From contig MCGO01000007.1 in the NCBI GenBank assembly GCA_002104985.1, forward strand, positions 620,001-684,000: 64,000 nucleotides of DNA, read 5' to 3'. Of the stretch, positions 28,305-41,785 are shown piece by piece. A model generated the notes under the pieces. The model had not been told where the DNA came from and did no database searches. It saw only the letters and a program-made list of their open reading frames with translations. Positions within the stretch are counted from its first letter, which is position 1; the number at the start of each line of letters is the position of its first letter. A program made the position numbers and the translations under genes. This DNA comes from Rhizoclosmatium globosum (Eukaryota; Chytridiomycota; Chytridiomycetes; Chytridiales; Chytriomycetaceae).

Positions 28305-28636
28305 ATGACAACAGTTCTTTACACCGCTTCTCAAACAGTATTAAACAATGGACCATTGAACAACGCAGCCTATTACTCTAATAACAGCTGCCTTTGTCAA
28401 GATTCCTGCGGCGTTGGCCCAATTTCGATGACTCAACGCTATTGCCACGTCACGCCTTCTTGTGCAGCTGCAAAATACTCCTTGGGGTATTACAACTTTT
28501 GTGATATGCCCTTCAGTTACCCACAGGGACCCAGCAACCTGTCAATCAAGGGGTGAACAGCCTGTTGCCAAAGAGTGAGGGATTCTCAACAATCGGATCA
28601 GTTAGCTGGCTTATAGTTCTTTATTTGATTTGTTGA
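28305..28636 (+). CDS. small Cys-rich protein, paralogue
   Basis: About 110 residues. Same domain as the gene at 27404: CLCQDSCGVGPISMTQRYCH, TPSCAAAK, YYNFCDMPF, but with no Gln/Ala repeat. After FSYPQGPSN one base appears to be missing; the next frame reads NQGVNSLLPKS and a hydrophobic end SVSWLIVLYLIC, matching the tail of the paralogue. Start MTTVLYTASQ chosen because it aligns with the paralogue's length. Unknown function. Confidence 0.6.
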
Positions 28637-28698: not shown

Positions 28699-29731
28699 TC
28701 AAGCTGAGGTTGGAATACCACACACAGTGTTTCCACACACAAAGTAGACTGCATCAACACATCCATATGGCCCACCAGTGACTGAAACCTTGTTGCTCCA
28801 TCCGACAGTGGTACAGTGTGGAACAACGGCGGCAATCTTTGAGAGACAGTCGAGGGGATCACACGTTGGATATCTGGAATCATTTGGAGTTAGCTTATAA
28901 GTAGATCCAACACCGGCTGTGCATGGACTGTGAAGACAGGTTCCGAAAGGAACGTTGACAAGAGTTGAAGTTGGGGCACTTGTGGTGGTTGTAGTGGTTG
29001 TAGTAGTAGTAGTGGTGACGACTGCCGTGGTTTTAGTCTTCACAACTGTTGTTGCAGTAGTTTTAACTTGAGCTGTAGTCGTTGGGACTGGACCTGCACC
29101 GTAACATTGGTCGGCAATGGCATTCATCCAAACAGCCATCTAAAGCAATCGTCAGTCAATAATAATATAACAAATTTAGCCACACACTCTGTATCCAGCT
29201 TTCGCAACTTGTTCCATCAAGAGGTCCTTGGTCTGTGGAAAACAACATGAGTATACAGTGAAGATTTGCAACAATGAATAATAATTACAGCAGTGTAGTA
29301 AGCACCGCCAAAGTCGGCACTTGGGTCTTTATCATAAAGGGTCCAGAATGCATTCTTGTTGCAGTCAAGCGAGTTTGCATGATTGGCCATGGCCTACTGT
29401 CCATTAGAGCTACGTGTGGCAGGAGTCAAAAGTACTTACAATGGCGGCGATCAAGTTATTTGCAGCATCAACCGTTTTAAGGTCAATGAACGTGGACGTA
29501 GTGTACGCACCCTTGTTATTTCCGTAAATGCCATCCAAGTAGTTCGCGACAGGCACGGCGTCTGAGCTGGAGAATCCCTTCTCAACAGCATAAGCTTGAG
29601 GAATCTCAGAGTCGTGAATGGAGTGGAAGTTTGTTTGGGCTCCGTTGAAAACAATCTTGTCGGAGTTTCCACCAACGTCACGGTTGCAGTTGTGCAAAGG
29701 TTGTGAAATGTCACCCAAGAAGTGAGCCAAA
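28699..29731 (-). pseudogene. S1/P1 nuclease, C-terminal part
   Basis: Exons carrying the second half of an S1/P1-type zinc nuclease: LAHFLGDISQPLHNCNRDVG, then NFHSIHDSEIP (metal-binding His and Asp), AMANHANSLDCNKNAFW and ADFGGAYYTA, split by short introns near 29400-29445, 29230-29290 and 29140-29195. A Thr-rich linker (TTTTTTTT) leads to a Cys-rich domain of about 75 residues. The N-terminal half is not adjacent; it lies at 36902-37242 on the same strand. The first base of this part fits the phase of that exon's donor exactly. Likely a secreted nuclease gene, now broken or dependent on an unusually long intron. Confidence 0.8.
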
Positions 29732-30124
29732 CTGAAAAAGAATATTGGAACTCAATGGCAAACATATTTTGCGTATACACCCCGGGATGGTTACAACACT
29801 CACTGACATTTTCCCCCAAAATTTCATCAAATATATTGACTTTTACATTGGAGAACAATAAACAGTGACCAATCAAATTGGAGATGGAAACGGCAATGTG
29901 GATGAATAGTTTCAAAAAAATTGTTGACCAACAATATTGCCAACTATATCCATTAACAAAATGTGTCTTAGCCCTAAAAATAAGATTTATTTTCTTGAGA
30001 AACATCATGAGACATAATTATGGTAGCACATCTTCTAGATCATCAATCTAAATGTAACTGTTGAAAATGTAAGGATGTGTTAGAGACTGACCAAGACAAA
30101 TGACTTAAACATCAACAATGAGAT

Positions 30125-30650
30125 GTTCATGAGTTGGGAGTGTTTGCAAAAGTGTTTATGTGGAGGGAGAAGTGAGCAAGACTATTTACAGAGTGACTGA
30201 AACTGTTTGCAGAGTGACTGAAACTGTTTGTGGAGTGAGAGTGTGTTTGCGGAGTGAGCGAAAGTGTTTGCGAAGTGAGCGTATGTGTTTGCAAAGTGAG
30301 CGTATGTGTTTGCAAAGTGAGCGTATGTGTTTGCGGAGTGAGCAAGTGTGTTTGCAGAGTTAGCGTATGTGTTTACAGAGTGGCCCAGACTGTTTGTGAA
30401 GTGAGAGTATGTGTTTGCTAAGTGAGCAAAACTGTTGACGGAGTTAGCGAATGTGTTTGCGGACTGTTTGCAGAATGAGCATATGTGTTTGCGAAGTGAG
30501 CATATGTGTTTGCAAAGTGTCCGAGACTGTTTGCGTAGTGAGTGAATGTGGTTGCGGAGTGAGCAAATCTGTTTGCGAAGTGAGCGTATGTGTTTGTGAA
30601 GTGAGCAAAAGTGTCTTCAAAGTGTCCGAGACTGTTTTCAAAGGCATGCG
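30125..30650 (+). repeat. 21-bp minisatellite, about 25 units
   Basis: Degenerate tandem units of 21 bases, such as GTGTTTGCAAAGTGAGCGTA plus one base. Because 21 is a multiple of three, long open frames appear on both strands as heptad-like peptides (CLQSERM on plus, HFANTYA on minus). No start, domain or splice signal supports a protein. Confidence 0.9.
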
Positions 30651-30921
30651 TTCTAAGCAAAAAGTGGAGACTTGCTGAACTTCCATCAGTGTAGGGGTGT
30701 TCTGGCTTCCCCAAACCCCCAGATCAATTCTATCAGACCTGATTTCTGGCAAGAATAATGCATGTTATCTGTTGAGGCCACAGAAGGGACAATTCTTTTG
30801 GTTATTCTGAGTTTATTGATAATTTTAACCTATGTTTTAATCCACAGAATCACTGTCATCTTCAATCTGGGAAGCAGTGCTTTGGATGCGTTTCTTTCAC
30901 CTCTTTCTTTTGTCTTTTGTT

Positions 30922-31170
30922 TCAACAGATGGAACCTGCTGTTTTCATCAGGACGTAAACCTTGTGTCTGATTCGAGATAGAATCACGTTGAAGTGCAAC
31001 AGCCAACCGATGTACACCTGTATCAAATACTTCAAAATACAAACATTTTGGATTGTGTACTCACCTGTTACCATGTGTCGTGGAATCGAAAAGTTATTCA
31101 TCTCTGAAATGTGTCCACCACAAATGCGGCAAGTCCATCCATTGTTTGTTGCTTTCCAGATTGAAGACAT
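30922..31170 (-). CDS. possible BED/C2H2-like zinc-finger exon
   Basis: Open frame beginning MSSIWKATNNGWTCRICGGH, continuing with ISEMNNFSIPRHMVTGEYT. The C-x-x-C ... H-x(n)-H spacing resembles a BED or C2H2 finger. A donor GTGAGT follows PRHMVTG, and basic coding-like sequence further left (KERGERNASKALL) may be the next exon. It sits head-to-head with the gene at 31300. Could be a transposon-encoded DNA-binding protein. Weak evidence. Confidence 0.3.
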   Translation of the reverse strand: MSSIWKATNNGWTCRICGGHISEMNNFSIPRHMVTGEYTIQNVCILKYLIQVYIGWLLHFNVILSRIRHKVYVLMKTAGSIC

Positions 31171-31526
31171 TTTTCTTATCTATTTATTTTGGATACAGAA
31201 AACTGATCTTAATGAGGGATAACCCATGTGTTTTTCCAGGTCAGTTATTCCGGCTCATGCATTTCCAATTGAGCCTCAAAATTTCAAATCAACCTAACAT
31301 GTCCTCAAACAATCCTCAACCCAACCTCCCCACTACAAATTCAACATCACGAATCTCAAAGCTTTTGAATACAAGGTTTGGCGATTCAAGACCTGCCGGT
31401 GATCCTGCCGGAGCCTCGAGAGAAGACGGACGTGCGCGAGGCAGTAGTTCATCATCAGCCACACCCATCATTTGCCAGCGCTCTGAATCACCTTTGCGAT
31501 GCCGCTCTTCTGCAGATCTTGCAAGA

Positions 31527-32985
31527 ATAGTAGGTAGGGATGCTAACCTGGTCTAAACCCGGTACCTGCGGGTATGAGTCATCAGGTATACCTGGGGGTG
31601 TTGAGGGTGAACCTGTACATGTCAGGTTGGGTGGTGGTCAGAAGGTCCGGAAAGGATGCCTGCCCAGCCGTGCCTATCAAACATGATTAGTGTCCTCTCT
31701 CTTTCTTTATACAACAAATAAATAAAGATTAAATAAAGAAAAGTGAGCTCTCGTTTGTACATTGATCCTCTTTTTTACCGAGTAGGCACTCGTCGCCTGA
31801 TATCGGGGAGTACGGACCCGTCCTTTAATGAGAAGGAACTCATACCAGTGACAAGATGGTAACTTGGCCGTTTTATGAGAGGCACTCGATAGCTTTCGTT
31901 TTATGTATAATAAAGTGCATCGCCCCGCCTTCTCACTTCTTTGCGCAATTAAATGGCAGCGCCGTGACCTTTGGAGTCACAGCACAGAAGCATTGAGAGA
32001 TTGGAACGCGCCCTACAGTCAAGTTAAGTTTATTGAAAGATGAAAGAAGATTAAAGAGAAGAAGAGAAAGAAAAAAGAACGGAAATAGCTTTAAGCCACA
32101 TGATTCTGTTGTTGAAGCTCACGTGTAACGTCGCCCTCCTCCATATTGATTCAAAGCAACAAGCGATGTTGCCTTGGTATTAAATGAAAGGACATCAGTT
32201 GTATACCAGTTGTGCATACAAATTAACGCTCCTGCAGTGTCAGGCGTCAATCGATTACGCTTCTCGGTGATGATGTTCCCTGCATCCGAAAACAGGTGCT
32301 CAGATGGAACAGAGGAGCCGGGAATGGCCAAAAAGTCCCGGCCATTTTCCATAGACTTGGGTATTTGTCCTTGTTGGCTTCCCACCACTTGAGGGCATTG
32401 ACTTCAGACAATCAATCGAGTTTCAGGTATCTAAATGGAGTAAAAACCGTGAGATGAGCTGAGAATGATACACCATACGCTTCAAGTTTGTCTGCATCCA
32501 CAGCCACTCTTGTGGCTCCCCGTTTTCGCTTTACACCTGCCAACTGGAGCTTGAACTGTTGGCGCTTGATGAGTTGTTAGTCCACTTTCTCCGTCTGCTT
32601 GTTCAAGTGCGGCAACTGGAAATGTAGAACAGTGCGAGGTGTCTCTTTTACCCTTAAACTAGGAGTTGAGGCAGCAGTAGACGGTGTTCTTGGACCTGCA
32701 GTAGTTTTGTTGTGCTTTGATGGTGTTTCAAGGACAGACTGGACGCTCTTCTTCATCGTCAAAGTCAGACATAGCAAGTTAATGATAAAAAATTGAAAAA
32801 AGAAATGGCTATATTGGACGTGTCATTTCCTGAAATTCTCCAAAAAATGAGCTACGTGACCCCCACCACCACCACCAGGTCACCCACCAGGTTCACCCAA
32901 AAACCAAACCTGGCCATGTCACGTGACCAGGTTTACCTGACCAGGTCCGGATATCAGGTATAAAATTCGCATCCCTAATAGTAGG
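31527..32985. mobile_element. internally deleted hAT transposon with target-site copies
   Basis: The element spans 31535-32977 (1,443 bp). Its ends are inverted repeats TAGGGATGC and GCATCCCTA, and it is flanked by perfect 8-bp direct copies ATAGTAGG (31527-31534 and 32978-32985), the hAT hallmark length. It holds both ends of a transposase gene on the minus strand but no middle, so it cannot move on its own. Subterminal regions carry repeated ACCTGG-type motifs (CAGGTTxACC) that may be transposase sites. Confidence 0.93.
32119..32772 (-). pseudogene. hAT transposase remnant
   Basis: Starts MSDFDDEEERPVC with an acidic end; after a gap and stops it resumes with the hAT dimerisation domain: LKWWEANKDKYPSLWKM, FLAIPGSSVPSEHLFSDAGN, IITEKRNRL, ALICMHNWY. 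The DNA-binding and catalytic middle is missing and the joined frame is broken. Clearly non-functional alone. Confidence 0.88.
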
Positions 32986-34035
32986 CTGGAACTCACACGC
33001 AAGTGAGCCAAGTTGGAGCTCATTGAAAATGTAAGCGCAACTCAAACAATTCTTGCTCATCAACTATTTTGTTTAAGGTACCTGATCATCTTGTTCCACA
33101 ACTGGTTTTTGCGCTTCTTGCTATTCTATTGGACCGTGGTAGTGTCAAAGACTTCATGGATCGCTATAAGGTATTCTTGATTTTAATACACCTGCCTTCT
33201 AAAAACTGACTTAGGCTCAAGCATCAAAAGCCATTCAGAAATTCTTCTTTACGACTCTTTCAAAATCCTCTTCACTTCCTATGTCATGCCATTCAAAGAT
33301 ACCAAGGGTGGGATTGAAGTATTTACAAAGCTCCGATATGAAAGAGTCCCAGTCAAGAACTGTGTTGAAGAATGCTTACTATTCATGAAGGTTGGGGTTT
33401 TATTTGGTATAGGTGGAGGGTGTGCTTGAACCGAAAACAAATTCCAAGATCAACGCTGCCAAGGATTACCTTTCAAAAGCCTTGGCTTCCTATCGCCACA
33501 AATTGAAAAAAACTGTGAGTGTAAAAACTGGTTGCCTTTTTGACTAATGCGTACAAATAGCTGTTAGCCATTGGCAAAGCCGATTCCTTTCAACTGAGGG
33601 CTTCAAAAGGTTATTACCCAAAGACTGGTTTGTTGTTGCAATGTTGCTATTTTGAACTTTCTAAACACTGACATAGTCTCACTTTGCTCGAATGTTTGCT
33701 TTGGGGGAGAGGGGAGTGACAATGACCACTAATTGTTCATGTTATCTTTGTTTGATATTCTTTCCAAAAGTGAAATAAATGAATGGATGTGTCAGTTAAA
33801 AATCTGATTAGTAAAGGCCAAAAGGAATAACTTTTTTCAATGTCTCTGGGCAGATTATGACAATATTGTTGGTATTGATTTCCACAGACTTCTTTTGCAA
33901 TGTAATTCTATCAGTATTTTCCAACAATCTGCATTTTTGTTCTGAGAGGTGGATGTTTTTGTTTGAAACTATTTTGGTTATTCTTGAGGAATACTTTGGG
34001 AAAATGTTGACCAACGTAAACCACCTACACCGTTC

Positions 34036-34100
34036 ACCACTAATAGTGTCTATGCATAATTAGTGTCAATTCACTAATAGTGTCGACGACACTATTTAAT
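34036..34100. repeat. left subterminal palindromic repeats of pogo element
   Basis: Two copies of ACTAATAGTGTC; the second continues into GACGACACTATT so that TAGTGTCG / CGACACTA form a near palindrome. The same motif is repeated at the right end. Probably transposase-binding sites. Confidence 0.75.
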
Positions 34101-34167
34101 GTTAAAACTTGAGAACCAGCCTTCAAGGAAAAAATCGACACTTTTTAGTGTAAAATATTTAATGTTA

Positions 34168-34624
34168 TTAAATTTGAGATTTCATATTATCCAACTTTTG
34201 ACTGGTTATAATATCCATTTTAACGTAAGGTTCATTTAACAACATCACTTCAGCACAACTGAACTTCGCCTTATTCAACCTACGTCCGTGTGCTGCTAAA
34301 CTGTCTTTCATGAGTTCTGACACAATGCCAATGCATCCAGAATAGCATTCTTCTCCATTCTGCTCCAAATCAAACAAATCTTAGAGCAAGCATTCCAAGA
34401 AGGCAACGTCGACGTCCATCACTCCCAACTCGGTAGCACTTGATACACGGAAGTCGCCCTCCCATGGGAGCAGCATAAGTTGAACGTGCCAAAATTACTG
34501 TATCCTTGAGCTGAAGCAATAAACCACAACCAGCGGGATGGTCAAGGCATGTACAACCTTCACTGGTCTTTGCAAGACCAACAATAACAACCGGGCGAGT
34601 TGAGTTTGACATGCAGCTTTTCAA
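34168..34624 (-). CDS. second ORF of the pogo element, unknown
   Basis: Two overlapping open segments on the strand opposite to the transposase. The first starts MKSCMSNSTRPVVIVGLAK and has EGCTCLDHPAGCG and LPCIKCYRVG, a Cys-rich pattern like a small zinc-binding domain; the second continues FDLEQNGEECYSGCIGIV to the end KLDNMKSQI. The junction near 34370 needs a frame change. It starts only about 170 bp from the transposase start, so the two would share a divergent promoter. Not recognised; could be an accessory protein or captured host sequence. Confidence 0.4.
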
Positions 34625-34796
34625 ATATGTTTTTTGTTATTATCAAAATCGGAATCGGAATCAGTCCTTTTTTGACAGTGCAAACACAAAATAAACAGAA
34701 ATGACAGCGGAAGCAACTTTTCAAGACAATTCAAGATAATGCTGATATAAGATGGTCTTTTTTTCGATTCATGGTCTTTTCTAATATTTCCAAAAT

Positions 34797-36614
34797 ATGC
34801 AAGCTGCCTTTGACATTCAGCGCCGCAGAGAGGAAGATAATGTGGCCCTGCTGAGACTCCTTGGGGGCATTCCTTACAATCCTAATTATGACCATGACTA
34901 CGTTCCAAGTGAGTCGGAGGAGGAAGAAGAAGCTGCTGCAAACTTTCTGGCACAGCCTTCATCGGATGAAGAGAACACTGAGAATGTCATTCATCAAAAG
35001 CGCAAAAGGCAAGGATACATCACATACAGATTATTTTATTGACAATTAAATGTACTTATATACAGAGCTTTACAACAAAACGTTCCACTAGCTTCAAGGA
35101 AAGTTATCATGCGCTGGATGTATAATGAGCAGGTGAAAGGATCTGCCACAATACCTGCACGGGCAATCAAACAGTTTCCAAATGCATTTCGCCAATCATA
35201 CGGGGCCAACCACAAGAAAGCATGTCGCTGGTTCAATGACTGTGAAGGAACGTTTGATCGTGGATCTCTTCATGTTTCGTCATACACTGACGGTGGACGA
35301 GTCCAAGTTCAACGCAAAGCACGTAGAGGCTGTGGTCGTAAAGTTTCGCCATGGGTTTCTGCCATCCATCTGGAGTTGAAAGACGAGTTTGAGCGTCTTC
35401 GGAAAGCAGGAGTGAAGTTTGATCCGAATTTGTTGAGGACGTTGGCTGTGTCGTTGGTTTCAAGGGGCCTGGAATATGGTCCAGACTACGAGATGCTGTT
35501 AGGCAAGGATTCAGTTGACATAGATGGAAAAAAACATATTGACAAGCTTACCTATCGATGGAACTTCATGGAGCGCAACAATATTGTCACTCGTCGCCAA
35601 ACTGGAAAGTTATCAGTGTCTCCTGAAAAACAAGAAGCTATTGAGCGATCTGTTGCTTACCACATGGGTCAACTGAAACGGGATTTTGAAAATGGCACAT
35701 TGGATGAGGATCTGGTTCGCAATGCAGACGAAGCCCACTTCATTGTCAATATGGATAACCACAAGACCCTTGGATTTATCGGGGATGAAGAAGTTAAGTA
35801 CAGTGATGTGACATCGGGAGGGGAAGGAATGACTATGGTGGTTTGGATGGGAGGAGGAAAGGAGGCGCTATTGGGGGATCCAATGATGATCTTCCAGAAT
35901 GCACAGTCTTCGTTCCCAATCCGTGGAGTTCCAAATGACGTTGAGGGAGTGTCTTACCGGACTGGTCCAAAAGGCTGGATTGATCGCAGTGTTTTCCCTC
36001 TTTTCATTTCTGACCCCAAAAGTTTCGTTCGTCACCGAAATGGAAAGTTGGCTGATCCTCAAGGTCGAAAGGTGAATAGCTTCTTCTCTTTCTTCTTTAT
36101 CTAAATTAAACAATAGGTAACTCTTTTTGTCGATAATTGTGGAGGCCACAATGACTCACCTCTCTTACGTCGTGCACTTGACAACGCCAATGTGAAGCTT
36201 CGATATTTCCCCCCAAATTCAACTCATTTGTGCCAGCCAGCAGATCAATGGCCGATTCAAAAGGTTAAAGAATGTTGGACGAAGATCTGGAACAAGGAAA
36301 AACTGCGCATGCTTGAGAATGAAGATGTGTCTGAAGCTTCTGGAAAGTTGAAGAATCCTGGAAAGCACTTCTTTCTGCGCACAGCCTCTCAATCCGTGAA
36401 AGACGCCAACTCCCAAAAGGACAGTGATGGCCTCTCCTACACCAGAAAAGCTATGATTCGTTGCGGACTAAGTCTTGAAAATGGAGAATGGAAGGAATCC
36501 ATGCTTTCTAAACAGCTGCAAGATATTATTAACAAGTATCGCGACAACTTCGATGGGACACCAGTGGATGAAGTTGTCGAAAGTGAACAAGAGTGTAGTT
36601 CTGGTTCTGAATAG
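34797..36614 (+). CDS. pogo/Tigger-like DDE transposase
   Basis: First exon MQAAFDIQRRREEDNVALLR with an acidic stretch (SESEEEEEA), then from about 35075 the main part. It has DNA-binding helices (ARAIKQFPNAFRQSYG), then the catalytic acids: NADEAHFIVNMD, VTLFVDNCGGHND (second Asp) and PPNSTHLCQPADQWPIQKVK (third Asp in the Q-P-x-D context of the DDE_1/Tigger group). An intron at 36072-36117 splits before VTLFVDN. The join between the N-terminal exon and the main part (around 35010-35075) is not clear. C-terminus is acidic, VDEVVESEQE. May be active or recently active. Confidence 0.85.
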
Positions 36615-36689
36615 GAAGATTAATATTAATGTCTTTTATTTCTTATATTTTATTGTGTTTTGATTAAACTTTTTGATTTCATTGTGGTG

Positions 36690-36802
36690 TCTTGAATTAG
36701 TGTCGATTCACTAATAGTGTCATCGACACTATTTACTGTAAATTCTAGCCGATTGGACATTTTAGAAGTTACATAAATTAGTGTCGTCGACACTATTAGT
36801 GG
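36690..36802. repeat. right subterminal palindromic repeats of pogo element
   Basis: Contains CACTAATAGTGTCATCGACA and, further right, TTAGTGTCGTCGACACTA, inverted relative to the left-end copies. Confidence 0.7.
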
Positions 36803-36901
36803 TTGACGGTGTAGATTAGGAAGTCATAACAGTCACAAAATATTCACCTTGTCTCAATGATTTTATTCTAAAATGTTGGTCACCCTCTGGGGTGTACTCA
36901 C

Positions 36902-37242
36902 AATTGGATGGCTTGAGTGGACGCTGTCGATGGAGCACATTTGTTGGCCAAGAGAATGTTGGTTTGATCGGTGATGGCAGCAATAATGCAGGTGCGTCCA
37001 ACAGAATCGGTGGAAACGTATCCACAAGAAGCTGGAGGAGCCTTCATCATGCCAACATAATGCCAAGCAGCAGTATCTCTGTGAGATGTTCGCCACGTAT
37101 CCGCCCAGTTTGCGGCTGACAAGTCACTGTTATTCAACAACTTGCCAATACAAGAACACTTACTCTGTCCAGCAAGAGATTGGGAGAAAGTCGAGTCGAC
37201 AAGAGAAGCCACAAGCTTCTGTCCATTAGCACTCAAGTACAC
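36902..37242 (-). pseudogene. S1/P1 nuclease, N-terminal part
   Basis: Encodes LSANGQKLVASLVDSTFSQS, then (after an optional 48-nt intron) ANWADTWRTSHRD, AAWHYVGMMKAPPASC and CIIAAITDQTNILLA, the usual order of the first half of S1/P1 nucleases. The invariant mature start W-x-x-x-G-H, two zinc ligands, is replaced by L-S-A-N-G-Q. No signal peptide precedes it; a palindromic repeat element begins directly upstream at 37228. The 3' donor (GTGAGT, phase 2) fits the acceptor at 29731 to restore QFLAHFLGD. Probably inactive. Confidence 0.75.
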
Positions 37243-37438
37243 CCCTAGACCATATTTGCGACGGAATTCCCACAGAGCACGTGTTCTGTTGGAACACTGT
37301 CGGAAATTATCACATAGTTCCCACGGACCATCTGTTAGGTGGGAATTGTCGTGGGAATTTGTGACATTGTTTTCGACAGAACGTTCCGTGGGATATTCTG
37401 TGAGAAGTTCCGACAGAGTATCGACAGATTAGGGTTAA
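37228..37438. repeat. MITE-like palindromic element, copy 1
   Basis: About 210 bp with inverted ends (ACCCCTAGAC... and ...GATTAGGGTT) and many internal copies of TTCCGACAGA/TCTGTCGGAA and GGAATTCC. Shares these motifs with the element at 38891. It abuts the nuclease 5' exon and seems to have replaced its signal-peptide exon. Confidence 0.6.
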
Positions 37439-38890
37439 ATCCATCCCACTTTAAAACAATTCGAGACGGGAGTTTGAACACAGAGCTTCTTGCACAGTGC
37501 CCCAAGTGTTACCAAAGGAAGTATCCCTCACCACACAGGACATGTTTAAGTTAGGATCCACAACAGTAAGGAAAGAAACATTAGAACTCCAGCCACGCGC
37601 TCTGTTCAATATTACAATTTATACTGATATTCAATTACGATATATATTAAAACTCATCCAAACCAAAGACACCATTTACAACTGGTGACCTTGTGTAATC
37701 GATTGTATGCAAGCTGTCCCTGCTGGCGACCTAACTTCCGACTTCGCGACCTTCCTCCGCAACTGTTCATTGCCAAATAAGTATAGAATAGTACAATAAA
37801 AGCGCAGGATAATGATAGACCTCCTTTGAAATAACTTCGAAATCAAGACAACAACAAGCTCAAGTTCTTTCCCTCGTCTCTCACACCCACACACACACAC
37901 ACACACACTCTCTCTCTCTCTCTCATCGATTTGCGTTTTGATTAAGCATATCTCTCCCAATCCATACCAACAGAGTCAAGGATTGATGAGTAATGCTGGC
38001 ACATTCAATTGCAAGTCGACAACAGAAGCCTATTTCCTGTGTCCAATAATGCGCTAACCCCTCAAACAAGCTGCTATTGACACACTCTAGGACTTCCCTT
38101 TGGGTTTCAAGTGTTACGGGGTGACTTAAGTCCACACTGTAAACTCAACTCACCTCGTTTTCCCTCCAGAATTCACGTCCGCTCCTTGCGTATTGTCTCG
38201 AAAGCCGCTTGTTCCAAACAATGGTCGCTCTGCGACGGGTGAGTACTTCAGTCCATACCACGCTGTTGATTGGATTCAATGCTAAAACTAAGTTAGGACC
38301 AGTTACAACTGAAAAGTATGAAATGTCTCAAAGCGACGCTGCAATTACGTTCTACGCTGCAATTACGTTCTATTACAAGTCAGGTACTTCCTCCCTTTCA
38401 CTTTCTCATTGCTCAACATCTTAGTCCACACTTTCGCAGTTGACAAGTAGAAAGTCGCGCTCGATTCTTGGATCGGTACTTGTTTATTAAGTAAGCTAGT
38501 AAAAGTTGTGCAGTTATGTGTCTTATCGAGCTTTTAGATATAACATGGACGTTCTATCTTTACCGTTCCGTTCACTTTCTTTGAGGTTGTGAAGTGGGGG
38601 AAGGGCCTTTGTCAGTGTCCATCGAGCAGAAGTTGACGCCTGCCGGACATTCTCGCTGACAGCCAAACAGATAACTTTGAAGACCGTCGCCCTAAAACTG
38701 GAGACTTGGTGCCAGGGTTTGTTTTCCGAGTGGCCAAATTCCAGTTGACTTTGGTGTGGTAAGTTAACTCTGAAACTGCTCTAATCTTTGATTTCATTCG
38801 GTTCTTGAAATAAATAATATAACCAATACAAATCATTTCCATCTTTTTGTCATGTGGCTGCCTCCCAAAATAAGAGACGGGGAACTGAAA
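37439..38890. other. non-coding, repeat-rich DNA
   Basis: No reliable gene. A short spliced frame from ATG 38221 (MVALRR, then TEKYEMSQSDAAITFYAAI) contains a direct duplication of GCTGCAATTACGTTCTA and might be a small gene, but the splice phases do not fit cleanly. Confidence 0.4.
37882..37923 (+). repeat. (CA)n(CT)n microsatellite
   Basis: Run of CA dinucleotides passing into CT dinucleotides, about 40 bp. Confidence 0.95.
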
Positions 38891-39098
38891 CGAACCCTGC
38901 TCTGTAGGGATTCTGTGGAAGAGTCTGGCGGAAATCCAACAGAGTTTTCTACGGAATTCCGACAGAGCAGCTCTGTTGAAATTCCGGCAGATAACCTTCT
39001 GTGGGAACTCTGTGGTGTAACCCTTTCGGAATTCCAGCCGGATTTTTCGACAGAATTCCGACAGAGTTCCACCAGAACTCCTGCAGAACAGGGTTAGC
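38891..39098. repeat. MITE-like palindromic element, copy 2
   Basis: About 208 bp bounded by AACCCTGCTCTG and CAGAACAGGGTT, inverted ends with one mismatch, and filled with GGAATTCCGACAGAG-type units in both orientations. No coding capacity; the high self-complementarity is typical of a miniature inverted-repeat element. Confidence 0.7.
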
Positions 39099-40072
39099 GG
39101 TGTACTGCAAAGCATCAGCAAGCGGCTTTCAACAAAATTCCGTTATTAATACCTTTTGAGCAAGAGTTCATGTGACAGGGTGGGCCAAGGAGTCTCCCCA
39201 AGCATGCACAGTGGCAGCAAACGAAACCAAAGAAATCACAGTTTGAACAAGCATTTTTGTGCAGATGGAAAGATTGTTAATGGGACATTTTTAACGCCTC
39301 CTCGCGCGTGCCCTTTGTCACGAGATCTCATCTCCAACAAATCTGGGCACGCAACATACAAGCAAAATCGTTTCGTTTCTAAAGCAGTGATATCACATTG
39401 AAACATTGTTGAGAGTGCCACAGAGCTGTTAATCGTACGAGCTTCAATTCATGATGTAAACCTTTGCTGCTCATGCATTTCAGGCACTCATTTTTGCCAA
39501 GAGGATATATCAGCAAGTTGCCCTGGAGCGATTTAATGAGATTTAAAAAGCATATATTTCGGATGTTCTAAGTATGGAAAACTATGGGGGCTGTTTCATA
39601 GTCCAGCATGTATGGAATCTATTTACAGTCTAACATTTCAAGAATGGGAAAGTGCAGAAGCATAATCTATACTTGAAGGTCTGCCACTTGTTTAATGTTT
39701 ACAAGTCTGAATAAGTGTCCGATAGTAAAAAAACATGAACAGAGTTGCATACCATATCAACAAATATTTCTTGTTGATAAAAAAGTGTGTTGAGGCTGGA
39801 TGAGGGATTTTTGCCATCCATTCGAAACGAAAAATGATCCTTGCCTACTCCATTGCCGCGATCCTCGCTGTTTTCACACATTTGTCGTTACCGTCACCAC
39901 AACCCAAGGCACTTCAACAAGACTTCTTCCACTTCGACAGTAAAATTACGTTGGCTCCCAACTCCTCTTCATCATTTCATCAGTTGCCCTCCTCATTGCC
40001 CGCCTTTTTTAAATTGTAGTGACATTAAGAAAGAAAGAAAATAGTTTATTACTATCATGCAGTATCAATAAC
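39099..40072. other. intergenic region
   Basis: No supported gene. A 61-residue frame from ATG 39834 (MILAYSIAAILAVFTHLSLP) begins like a signal peptide but has no further support. Confidence 0.4.
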
Positions 40073-41785
40073 TCACAGCAGGAGACAAATCTCTTGAGCT
40101 AAGTCCCGAATCAGTTTTTCCCTTTCTACTCCTGCCTTTCTGAATTCAGCTGCTTTCGCGTTTAAAATGTCAGCTGTTCCCAGCACGCTGGCAAGAGACA
40201 CGACTTCCTCTGGTGCTCTGTACAGCAAGTGACCCAGAGCTGACATGAGCCTCAACGCTGGAGAACATGACGATTAGTGAAGTGAGTTTGATTTCAACAA
40301 AAACTCACCAATCTCATCACCTTTCTCGGCTTCCAGCGCTTTTACAACAGCAGCAACCATTTCGAGACACCATTCTTCGTAAACAGAGTCCTCAGATTTG
40401 GGTCGTCCAAGAACAGCTTCCACAGCCATATTGAACGCAAGAGACGACGAGCATTGGCGTACAGATTCTTCTGGACTAAGCAGAGCATCAATCAACGTCG
40501 CAGTCGTGACAGTTCGATGTGGCGTTGATGGAGGAATCGTGAGATGCAATGCAAGAATGTGAGCCATTGTGTCGGAATGCGCGAAGAGGTTGCAGGTGAG
40601 ACGCAAAAGCATCATGTGCAATGCTTTCGGGAGCTGTGCAGTTTCATTGTATTGCGAGTGGGATGCCTTTTGGAACCGAGCAAGAAGAAGAATGAGTGGC
40701 GATGGAGACTGGGAAATCAGGGACTTTGCGACGGTTTCGTCAAGGACAAGGAGACGAAGAATGTCAATTAAAGGAAAGAGTTGATCAGGTTTCAAAGTCG
40801 CGATACATTTCTCTTTAGAGTGTGTAAGTGTTGCATCGAACCAGTTTGTATTCTTACCAAAGGCAGTCCACCAATTAGCTGGGAGAGGACCAAGCTTGAT
40901 TGTTCCTTCGTCGTATTTTGCTTTCAGAACAGCTTTAACTGCGTCCAAAACAGGCTCTGTTTCCGCACTAATTCCTGCTTCATTAAGCCATCCATTGAGT
41001 TTCCTGAAAATAAGCTCCAAGTCACTAGAATGCATGAACAGGATGAAATCTTTAGATAGAGCTCGAAGATTTGGTGTGTTCAGTTTGTCGTGTTCGTGTT
41101 GAGGTCCAGCAAACGTGGTTGTGGCGAGTGTTGACAAGAGCTCATTTTGAGGACGGTGTTCAGCAGCGACTCGAGACGGACCAAACATTTGCTCGATCAT
41201 TGGTGCAATTTGCTGGCCAAATGGTCTGTACGTGTGATTGAGAAATCGATGGAACACGAGGGAACATGATTACAAACTCACGTTGAGAGAAACTCCTTTG
41301 GCAGACCAGTAATATGCTTGGGAATCTCTCTTCCCACTAGAAACTGACATACTTCATTTGAGAAGGAGTTGCAGTTGTTGTCAAAGAGATGGTACTTGTC
41401 AGCCGTCCAGAACTCCCGCAAAGAGTCAATGTACTCCCAATAAACTTCTTCCGGGATTTGTGTTTCGCCCATATCGATTCGTTCGACGAGATGTCCGTGT
41501 GGCGTTGATTCGGGAACTTCGATTGAAATGCCCTGGCCAAAGTACGTTTCCTTTCCAAAGGCAACGACGGATGTGTGCCAAATACCCGCAATGTGCTGGC
41601 CAGTCAGGGCGACACTCATCATGGCCGCCATGCCCTGCGAGGTGGTTGCTGTGTTAGCTTACACATACTCAAGCCTTTTTCAGGTACCTGCGACAGATCA
41701 TACACATAAAGCTGTTGGAATAGGTGTCAGTATTGGGGCATACATGTGGTGGTCTCAGTGGTTGTCTTACCTGGACACGCGGCAT
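40073..41785 (-). CDS. PPPDE (DeSI-like) peptidase with PUL domain
   Basis: Five exons (41785-41771, 41711-41688, 41634-41282, 41225-40309, 40257-40073) joining in phase. The N-terminal PPPDE domain, a papain-like fold that removes SUMO or ubiquitin, has VQLYVYDLSQGMA, IWHTSVVAFGKETYFGQGI (catalytic His) and YHLFDNNCNSFSNEVCQFL (catalytic Cys). A linker with NTPNLRALSKDF leads to an alpha-helical PUL domain, which in Ufd3/PLAA binds the AAA ATPase Cdc48/p97; here it carries PLIDILRLLVLDE and PPSTPHRTV. The PPPDE-PUL order is known in fungi. Likely a cytosolic or nuclear deubiquitinase or deSUMOylase working with Cdc48; the last step is inference. Confidence 0.9.

What the first reader, a model, noticed from the sequence alone, without database searches (positions are those of the whole stretch)
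28699..37242. S1/P1 nuclease gene split by 7.2 kb of inserted DNA with splice sites and phase intact
The C-terminal half (29731 leftwards) and N-terminal half (36902-37242) are on the same strand in the right order. The donor GTGAGT (phase 2) and acceptor TTTTTCAG fit to restore ..IQFLAHFLGD. So an ordinary intron has become about 100 times longer than its neighbours by nested insertions of a pogo element, a hAT element, a minisatellite and at least one opposite-strand gene. The W and H metal ligands at the mature N-terminus are changed and the signal exon is gone, which suggests the gene is dead.
Basis: partly seen in the sequence, partly recalled or inferred. Interest (0 to 1): 0.75.

Follow-up and report, generated by a model that had tools for sequence, protein, structure and literature searches.

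The report
Chytrid nuclease gene broken by transposons
In one of the two chromosome copies of a chytrid fungus, a secreted nuclease gene has been split into three pieces by two jumping-gene insertions, one of which swells a 59-base intron to over 7,000 bases; this is a clear but ordinary case of transposons breaking a gene.

Summary
The split gene is real. The window lies on contig C388 of an assembly that a protein hit names as Rhizoclosmatium globosum. The other haplotype (C375) and both alleles of a close paralogue carry the gene without either insert, intron 3 being 59 nt long. In the window it is 7,170 nt: a 7,117-bp element with TA target duplication and CACCCC ends (29778-36894) sits in it and holds nested pogo (34028-36811) and hAT (31535-32977) elements and a minisatellite.

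It is probably dead all the same: exon 1 holds an in-frame TGA, insert 2 interrupts exon 2, and intron 3 lost a branch-point-like motif. Exon 3 shows a purifying-selection pattern (dN/dS about 0.1), so the damage is probably recent. The event is ordinary transposon damage, polymorphic between haplotypes.

The parts
39153..39254 (-). Exon 1 of the nuclease gene: signal peptide plus mature N-terminus WGDSLAHP (W and H ligands); in-frame TGA at 39168-39170
   Evidence: W/H aligned to nuclease S1 through P0001
39105..39152 (-). Intron 1 (48 nt)
   Evidence: splice agrees with the public paralogue model P0001
37240..39102 (.). Insert 2: TA-flanked repeat element, 1,863 bp, ends CACC[C/G]CTA; target duplication TA at 37238-37239 and 39103-39104, the first two bases of exon 2
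   Evidence: 13 of 13 other fetched copies end at TA
37164..37239 (-). Exon 2
37116..37163 (-).
   Evidence: P0001
36902..37115 (-). Exon 3; diverged (dS 0.68-0.69, dN 0.07-0.08) from the other three copies
29732..36901 (-). Intron 3, 7,170 nt here, 59 nt in the three other copies; 8-nt deletion near its acceptor removes the CTGAT motif
29778..36894 (.). Insert 1, outer element: ends CACCCC..GGGGTG, target duplication TA at 29776-29777 and 36895-36896; one end also found at C359:267635
34028..36811 (+). Nested pogo-like element, terminal inverted repeats (26 nt, 92%), TA duplication at 34026-34027 and 36812-36813; DDE_1 match in 36117-36611; empty site in the C35 relative of the outer element
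31535..32977 (.). Nested hAT element, ends TAGGGATGC..GCATCCCTA, 8-bp duplication ATAGTAGG at 31527-31534 and 32978-32985; hAT dimerisation fragment in 32119-32403 (minus)
30171..30614 (.). Minisatellite, about 21-bp unit, inside the outer element
31293..33500 (+). Opposite-strand coding-like remnant inside the outer element, itself split by the hAT; no family found; only itself found in the assembly
29440..29731 (-). Exon 4 (ligand motifs LAHFLGD, PLHNC, NFHSIHD)
29289..29393 (-). Exon 5
29188..29232 (-). Exon 6
28699..29139 (-). Exon 7 with Thr-rich linker, Cys-rich tail and stop codon

Best explanation
This is one allele of a secreted S1/P1-type nuclease gene (locus B) in the chytrid Rhizoclosmatium globosum, broken by two separate insertions of TA-targeting DNA transposons. 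Element 1 entered intron 3 at GTGAG^TA, five bases into the intron. It was itself invaded by a pogo element (at a TA) and a hAT element (8-bp duplication). Element 2 entered exon 2 at its first two bases, just after the intron 1 acceptor. The other haplotype (C375) has both sites empty. A paralogue (locus A, about 80 kb away on C375 and 85 kb on C388) probably keeps the function, so the damage was tolerated, and the allele also acquired a nonsense codon. Shown: structure, target duplications, empty sites, collinearity of the two contigs. Inferred: that the two contigs are haplotypes, loss of product, tolerance through the paralogue, and the order of events apart from the nesting.
For:: window 18.5-49.4 kb is collinear with C375 in pieces of 95.6-97.7% identity, except 36896-37240 (88.4%) and 39649-40243 (85.4%); C375:245108 and 245111 nearly abut where the window has insert 1, and C375:245451-245454 (GTAC) match both sides of insert 2; sequences and duplications at the junctions; insert-2 family ends at TA in 13 of 13 other copies. 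C359 has the same outer-element end against a different flank. C35 is an empty site for the pogo. PF02265, DDE_1 and hAT dimer matches. TGA in exon 1, and loss of the branch-like motif, which lies 10-14 nt before the acceptor in 5 of 6 introns of the C388 locus A allele; organism name on a contig whose length (807206) equals C388.
Against: No transcript data, so loss of product is not shown. The outer element carries no recognised transposase, its good inverted repeat is only TA plus CACCCC, no second end was found in the 9.5 kb fetched around its C359 relative, and most of its own content has no other copy in the assembly. The C375 allele of locus B is damaged too: CAG to TAG in exon 2, a 9-nt deletion that takes the intron 6 acceptor, and many 1-nt deletions; so locus B may be failing on both haplotypes for reasons unrelated to the inserts. 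The 1-nt deletions (2.9-22 per kb there, 0-0.8 per kb in the other pieces) look like unpolished consensus, but that is not shown. The locus A allele on C388 has a 1-nt deletion in exon 4.
Confidence: 0.9

Rival explanations
1. The 7.17-kb intron is still spliced, and the allele makes a nuclease or an N-terminally shortened protein.
For: Donor GTGAGT, acceptor TTTTTCAG and phase are kept; exons 2-7 have no internal stop codon; exon 3 shows dN/dS of 0.10-0.11.
Against: TGA in exon 1; insert 2 inside exon 2; branch-like motif deleted; the other introns of the window gene are 46-56 nt. Low dN/dS reports past selection.
Confidence: 0.06
2. Misassembly has joined pieces of two nuclease loci and unrelated repeats.
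For: Four similar gene copies exist, and exons 2-3 of the window are only 87-88% identical to the other three, as a chimera might show.
Against: Each insert boundary is a transposon end with a target duplication; both flanks are collinear with C375 over tens of kb; no other place in the assembly holds the diverged exons 2-3 (4 matches: the window and three at 87-88%).
Confidence: 0.04
3. The insertions are Introner-like elements that create introns.
For: Both lie within a few bases of splice sites; some Introner families show target duplications (3-9 bp) and inverted ends (passage in PMC9860276).
Against: Introns 1 and 3 are present in the three uninterrupted copies. The duplication here is 2 bp. 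AG stands before the left TA in only 4 of 13 distinct sites of the insert-2 family, window included (my count).
Confidence: 0.02

Closest known systems
S1/P1 nuclease (PF02265; nuclease S1 5fb9, P1 nuclease 1ak0)
   Same: Sequence match over the catalytic domain; W and H at the mature N-terminus and the later His/Asp motifs are kept in the window pieces
   Different: Window copy has a nonsense codon and two insertions; the chytrid gene also has a Thr-rich linker and a Cys-rich tail
pogo / Tc1-mariner type DNA transposons
   Same: TA duplication, inverted ends and DDE_1 domain in the nested element
   Different: The outer element and insert 2 share only the TA target and CACC ends; no transposase was recognised in the outer-element pieces tested
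hAT transposons
   Same: 8-bp duplication, short inverted ends, hAT dimerisation region
   Different: 1.4 kb; only a C-terminal transposase fragment was recognised
Introners
   Same: DNA-transposon-like insertion near splice sites
   Different: The introns exist without the insertions in the other copies

Membership tests
S1/P1 nuclease | PF02265 match | tested here: met
   2.8e-16 and 3.5e-07 for the two halves; 4.7e-49 for the paralogue P0001
S1/P1 nuclease | Trp and His ligands at the mature N-terminus | tested here: met
   window exon 1 WGDSLAHP; alignment of P0001 to nuclease S1; which residues bind metal is recalled
S1/P1 nuclease | uninterrupted secreted reading frame | tested here: not met
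   TGA at 39168-39170 and insert 2 in exon 2
pogo-like element (34028-36811) | TA target duplication and terminal inverted repeats | tested here: met
pogo-like element (34028-36811) | DDE_1 transposase | tested here: met
   PF03184, 9.9e-07, on the 36117-36611 ORF; the other two pogo ORF pieces submitted matched no family
hAT (31535-32977) | 8-bp duplication and hAT dimerisation region | tested here: met
Tc1/mariner superfamily (outer element) | TA duplication and inverted ends | tested here: met
   repeat is short
Tc1/mariner superfamily (outer element) | own DDE transposase | tested here: not met
   the outer-element ORF pieces submitted matched no family; not every ORF was submitted; therefore not filed as a member
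Introner | insertion creates a new intron | tested here: not met
   introns 1 and 3 present in the three uninterrupted copies

The most novel reading that the evidence does not exclude
TA-targeting elements in this chytrid land by preference on TA at splice junctions (GTGAG^TA, CAG^TA) and can so lengthen introns a hundredfold while keeping donor, acceptor and phase, with the giant intron still removed.
Probability: 0.04. Interest if true: 0.5.

Novelty: new member of a known kind. Interest (0 to 1): 0.2.

Why it matters
It is a clear example, with the empty allele in the same assembly, of how nested DNA transposons break a gene in a heterozygous early-diverging fungus. It corrects a reading error: a first exon that seemed missing was displaced, not lost. 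For annotators of this genome it shows that haplotype contigs can settle such cases without new data.

Tried and rejected
Rejected: C375:165k as the allele of the window gene. It was my first thought, but flank collinearity shows that C375:243-245.5k is the allele, and that C375:165k with C388:564k is a paralogue pair.

Rejected: a frameshift in exon 2 of the paralogues. It is intron 2, 48-50 nt in the four copies.

Led nowhere: the ORF region inside the outer element (31293-33500). No Pfam family for the pieces submitted, only itself in the assembly for the two pieces searched, no homologue for the 129-aa piece. Paper searches were seen as listings, of which 10 to 15 papers each were shown; nothing on this locus appeared in them, and I make no claim that it is not in print. 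PMC12115818 and PMC9860276 were seen as passages only.

A splice-site preference of the insert-2 family (AG before the left TA in 4 of 13 distinct sites) was not judged convincing; only this family was looked at.

Dropped rows: the C388:564k copy was left out of the exon 4 dN/dS comparison because its exon is one base shorter. Branch-like motifs were counted in two of the four copies only, window and C388:564k.

Full report
What is there. The window lies at C388:620001-684000 of a 56.9-Mb, 420-contig assembly. A protein search with the uninterrupted paralogue returned P0001, 'phospholipase C/P1 nuclease [Rhizoclosmatium globosum]', on a contig of 807,206 bases, the length of C388. The organism name rests on that match; the strain name JEL800 is from passages of PMC12115818, which speak of its reference genome. 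That this assembly is that genome is inferred.

Gene copies. PF02265 gave 16 exon-by-exon matches in the assembly. Four places share DNA with the window gene: the window itself, C375:243-245.5k, C375:165k and C388:564k. Collinearity settles their relations. Window 18.5-29.8 kb and 36.9-49.4 kb align with C375:233977-256900 in one orientation, in pieces of 95.6-97.7% apart from 36896-37240 (88.4%) and 39649-40243 (85.4%). So C375:243-245.5k is taken as the other haplotype's allele (locus B). C375:165k and C388:564k, which share with the window only the gene, 1 to 1.3 kb beyond its end and scattered repeats, are taken as the two alleles of a paralogue (locus A).

The two inserts. In C375 neither insert is present: C375:245108 pairs with window 29774, 245111 with 36896, 245454 with 37240, and 245451 with 39102. 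Insert 1 is bounded by TA and CACCCC at both ends (element 29778-36894). Taking away 7,117 bases and one TA leaves 51 nt of intron, the 59 nt of the other copies minus an 8-nt deletion. The same end stands at C359:267635 against different flanking DNA (93% over 59 columns); no second end was seen in the 9.5 kb fetched there. Insert 2 (37240-39102) has TA at both ends. Its long part matched 14 places including the window (a lower bound), and in 13 of 13 others the element ends at TA. Two of these (C2, C126) share both flanks, and the two on C62 share their left flank, so not all sites are independent. The window copy is shorter (1,863) than the others (2,052-2,124, one of 2,930).

Nesting. Inside insert 1 a pogo-like element (34028-36811) has 26-nt inverted repeats, 92% complementary, TA duplications and a DDE_1 match (9.9e-07). 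A relative of the outer element at C35 reads across the pogo site (75% over 106 columns, E 1.6e-15; my joined flanks were two bases short at the junction, which accounts for part of the 4-column gap there). A hAT element (31535-32977) has the duplication ATAGTAGG on both sides and a hAT dimerisation region (7.7e-13). It splits an opposite-strand coding-like region for which I found no relatives.

Exons. The gene has seven exons. The splices agree with the public model P0001 of the C388 locus A allele, except that P0001 leaves exon 4 earlier, next to that copy's 1-nt deletion. Its W and H are the positions that align, in P0001, with W1 and H6 of nuclease S1. The later motifs (NWADTW, AWHYV, LAHFLGD, PLHNC, NFHSIHD) are kept. 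Which residues bind metal is recalled.

Is it dead? Probably. TGA stands in exon 1 where 3 of 3 other copies have GGA. Insert 2 separates the first two bases of exon 2 from the rest. In the C388 locus A allele 5 of 6 introns have CTNAY 10-14 nt before the acceptor; window intron 3 has lost it. Intron 2 lacks it in both copies examined, so the motif is not indispensable. Against a long-dead gene: exons 2-7 have no internal stop, and exon 3 differs from the other copies by 22 synonymous and 10-12 non-synonymous changes (dN/dS 0.10-0.11). The inserts and the stop are therefore probably later than most of that divergence.

A side result. Exon 3 of the window differs from the other three copies at 32-34 of 210 sites, while these differ from each other at 2-9. 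In exon 4 the contrast is gone (dS 0.28 between window and two copies, 0.35 between those two). A stretch of its peptide is closer to Rhizoclosmatium sp. JEL0117 (2 of 49 differences) than to the others (5 of 49). Gene conversion among the other copies is the likely cause (inference).

Caution. The C375 allele has 2.9-22 single-base deletions per kb over the nuclease region and the piece next to it, and 0-0.8 per kb in the other pieces; the window side has none in the gene pieces, 4.6 per kb in 39649-40243 and 0.5-1.0 elsewhere. I take the excess for unpolished consensus. That allele also has a CAG to TAG change and a 9-nt deletion over the intron 6 acceptor, so locus B may be failing on both haplotypes.

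Verdict. It is ordinary transposon damage, well documented by the empty allele.

Noticed in passing
window 36902-37115: Exon 3, between the two inserts, is much more diverged from the other three copies (dS 0.68-0.69) than exon 4 is (dS 0.28, two copies compared), and its peptide is nearer to Rhizoclosmatium sp. JEL0117; suggests gene conversion among the other copies.
   Followed up: partly
window 31293-33500: Coding-like region in the outer element, opposite strand, cut by a hAT; the pieces searched were found only here in the assembly, and no relatives were found.
   Followed up: partly
C390:185583-186409 (L044): A copy of the insert-2 element whose head is repeated in tandem, about 275 bp per unit.
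   Followed up: no
C375:241162-242588, 245983-246347, 250534-251088: Extra DNA on the other haplotype relative to the window; the two haplotypes differ by several insertions around this gene.
   Followed up: no
C375:242.6-247 kb: Cluster of single-base deletions against the window, probably unpolished consensus in a duplicated region; also a TAG and a lost intron 6 acceptor in that allele.
   Followed up: partly
window 28308-28553 (+): Small Cys-rich protein ORF convergent to the nuclease gene and duplicated together with it at locus A; no Pfam family.
   Followed up: no
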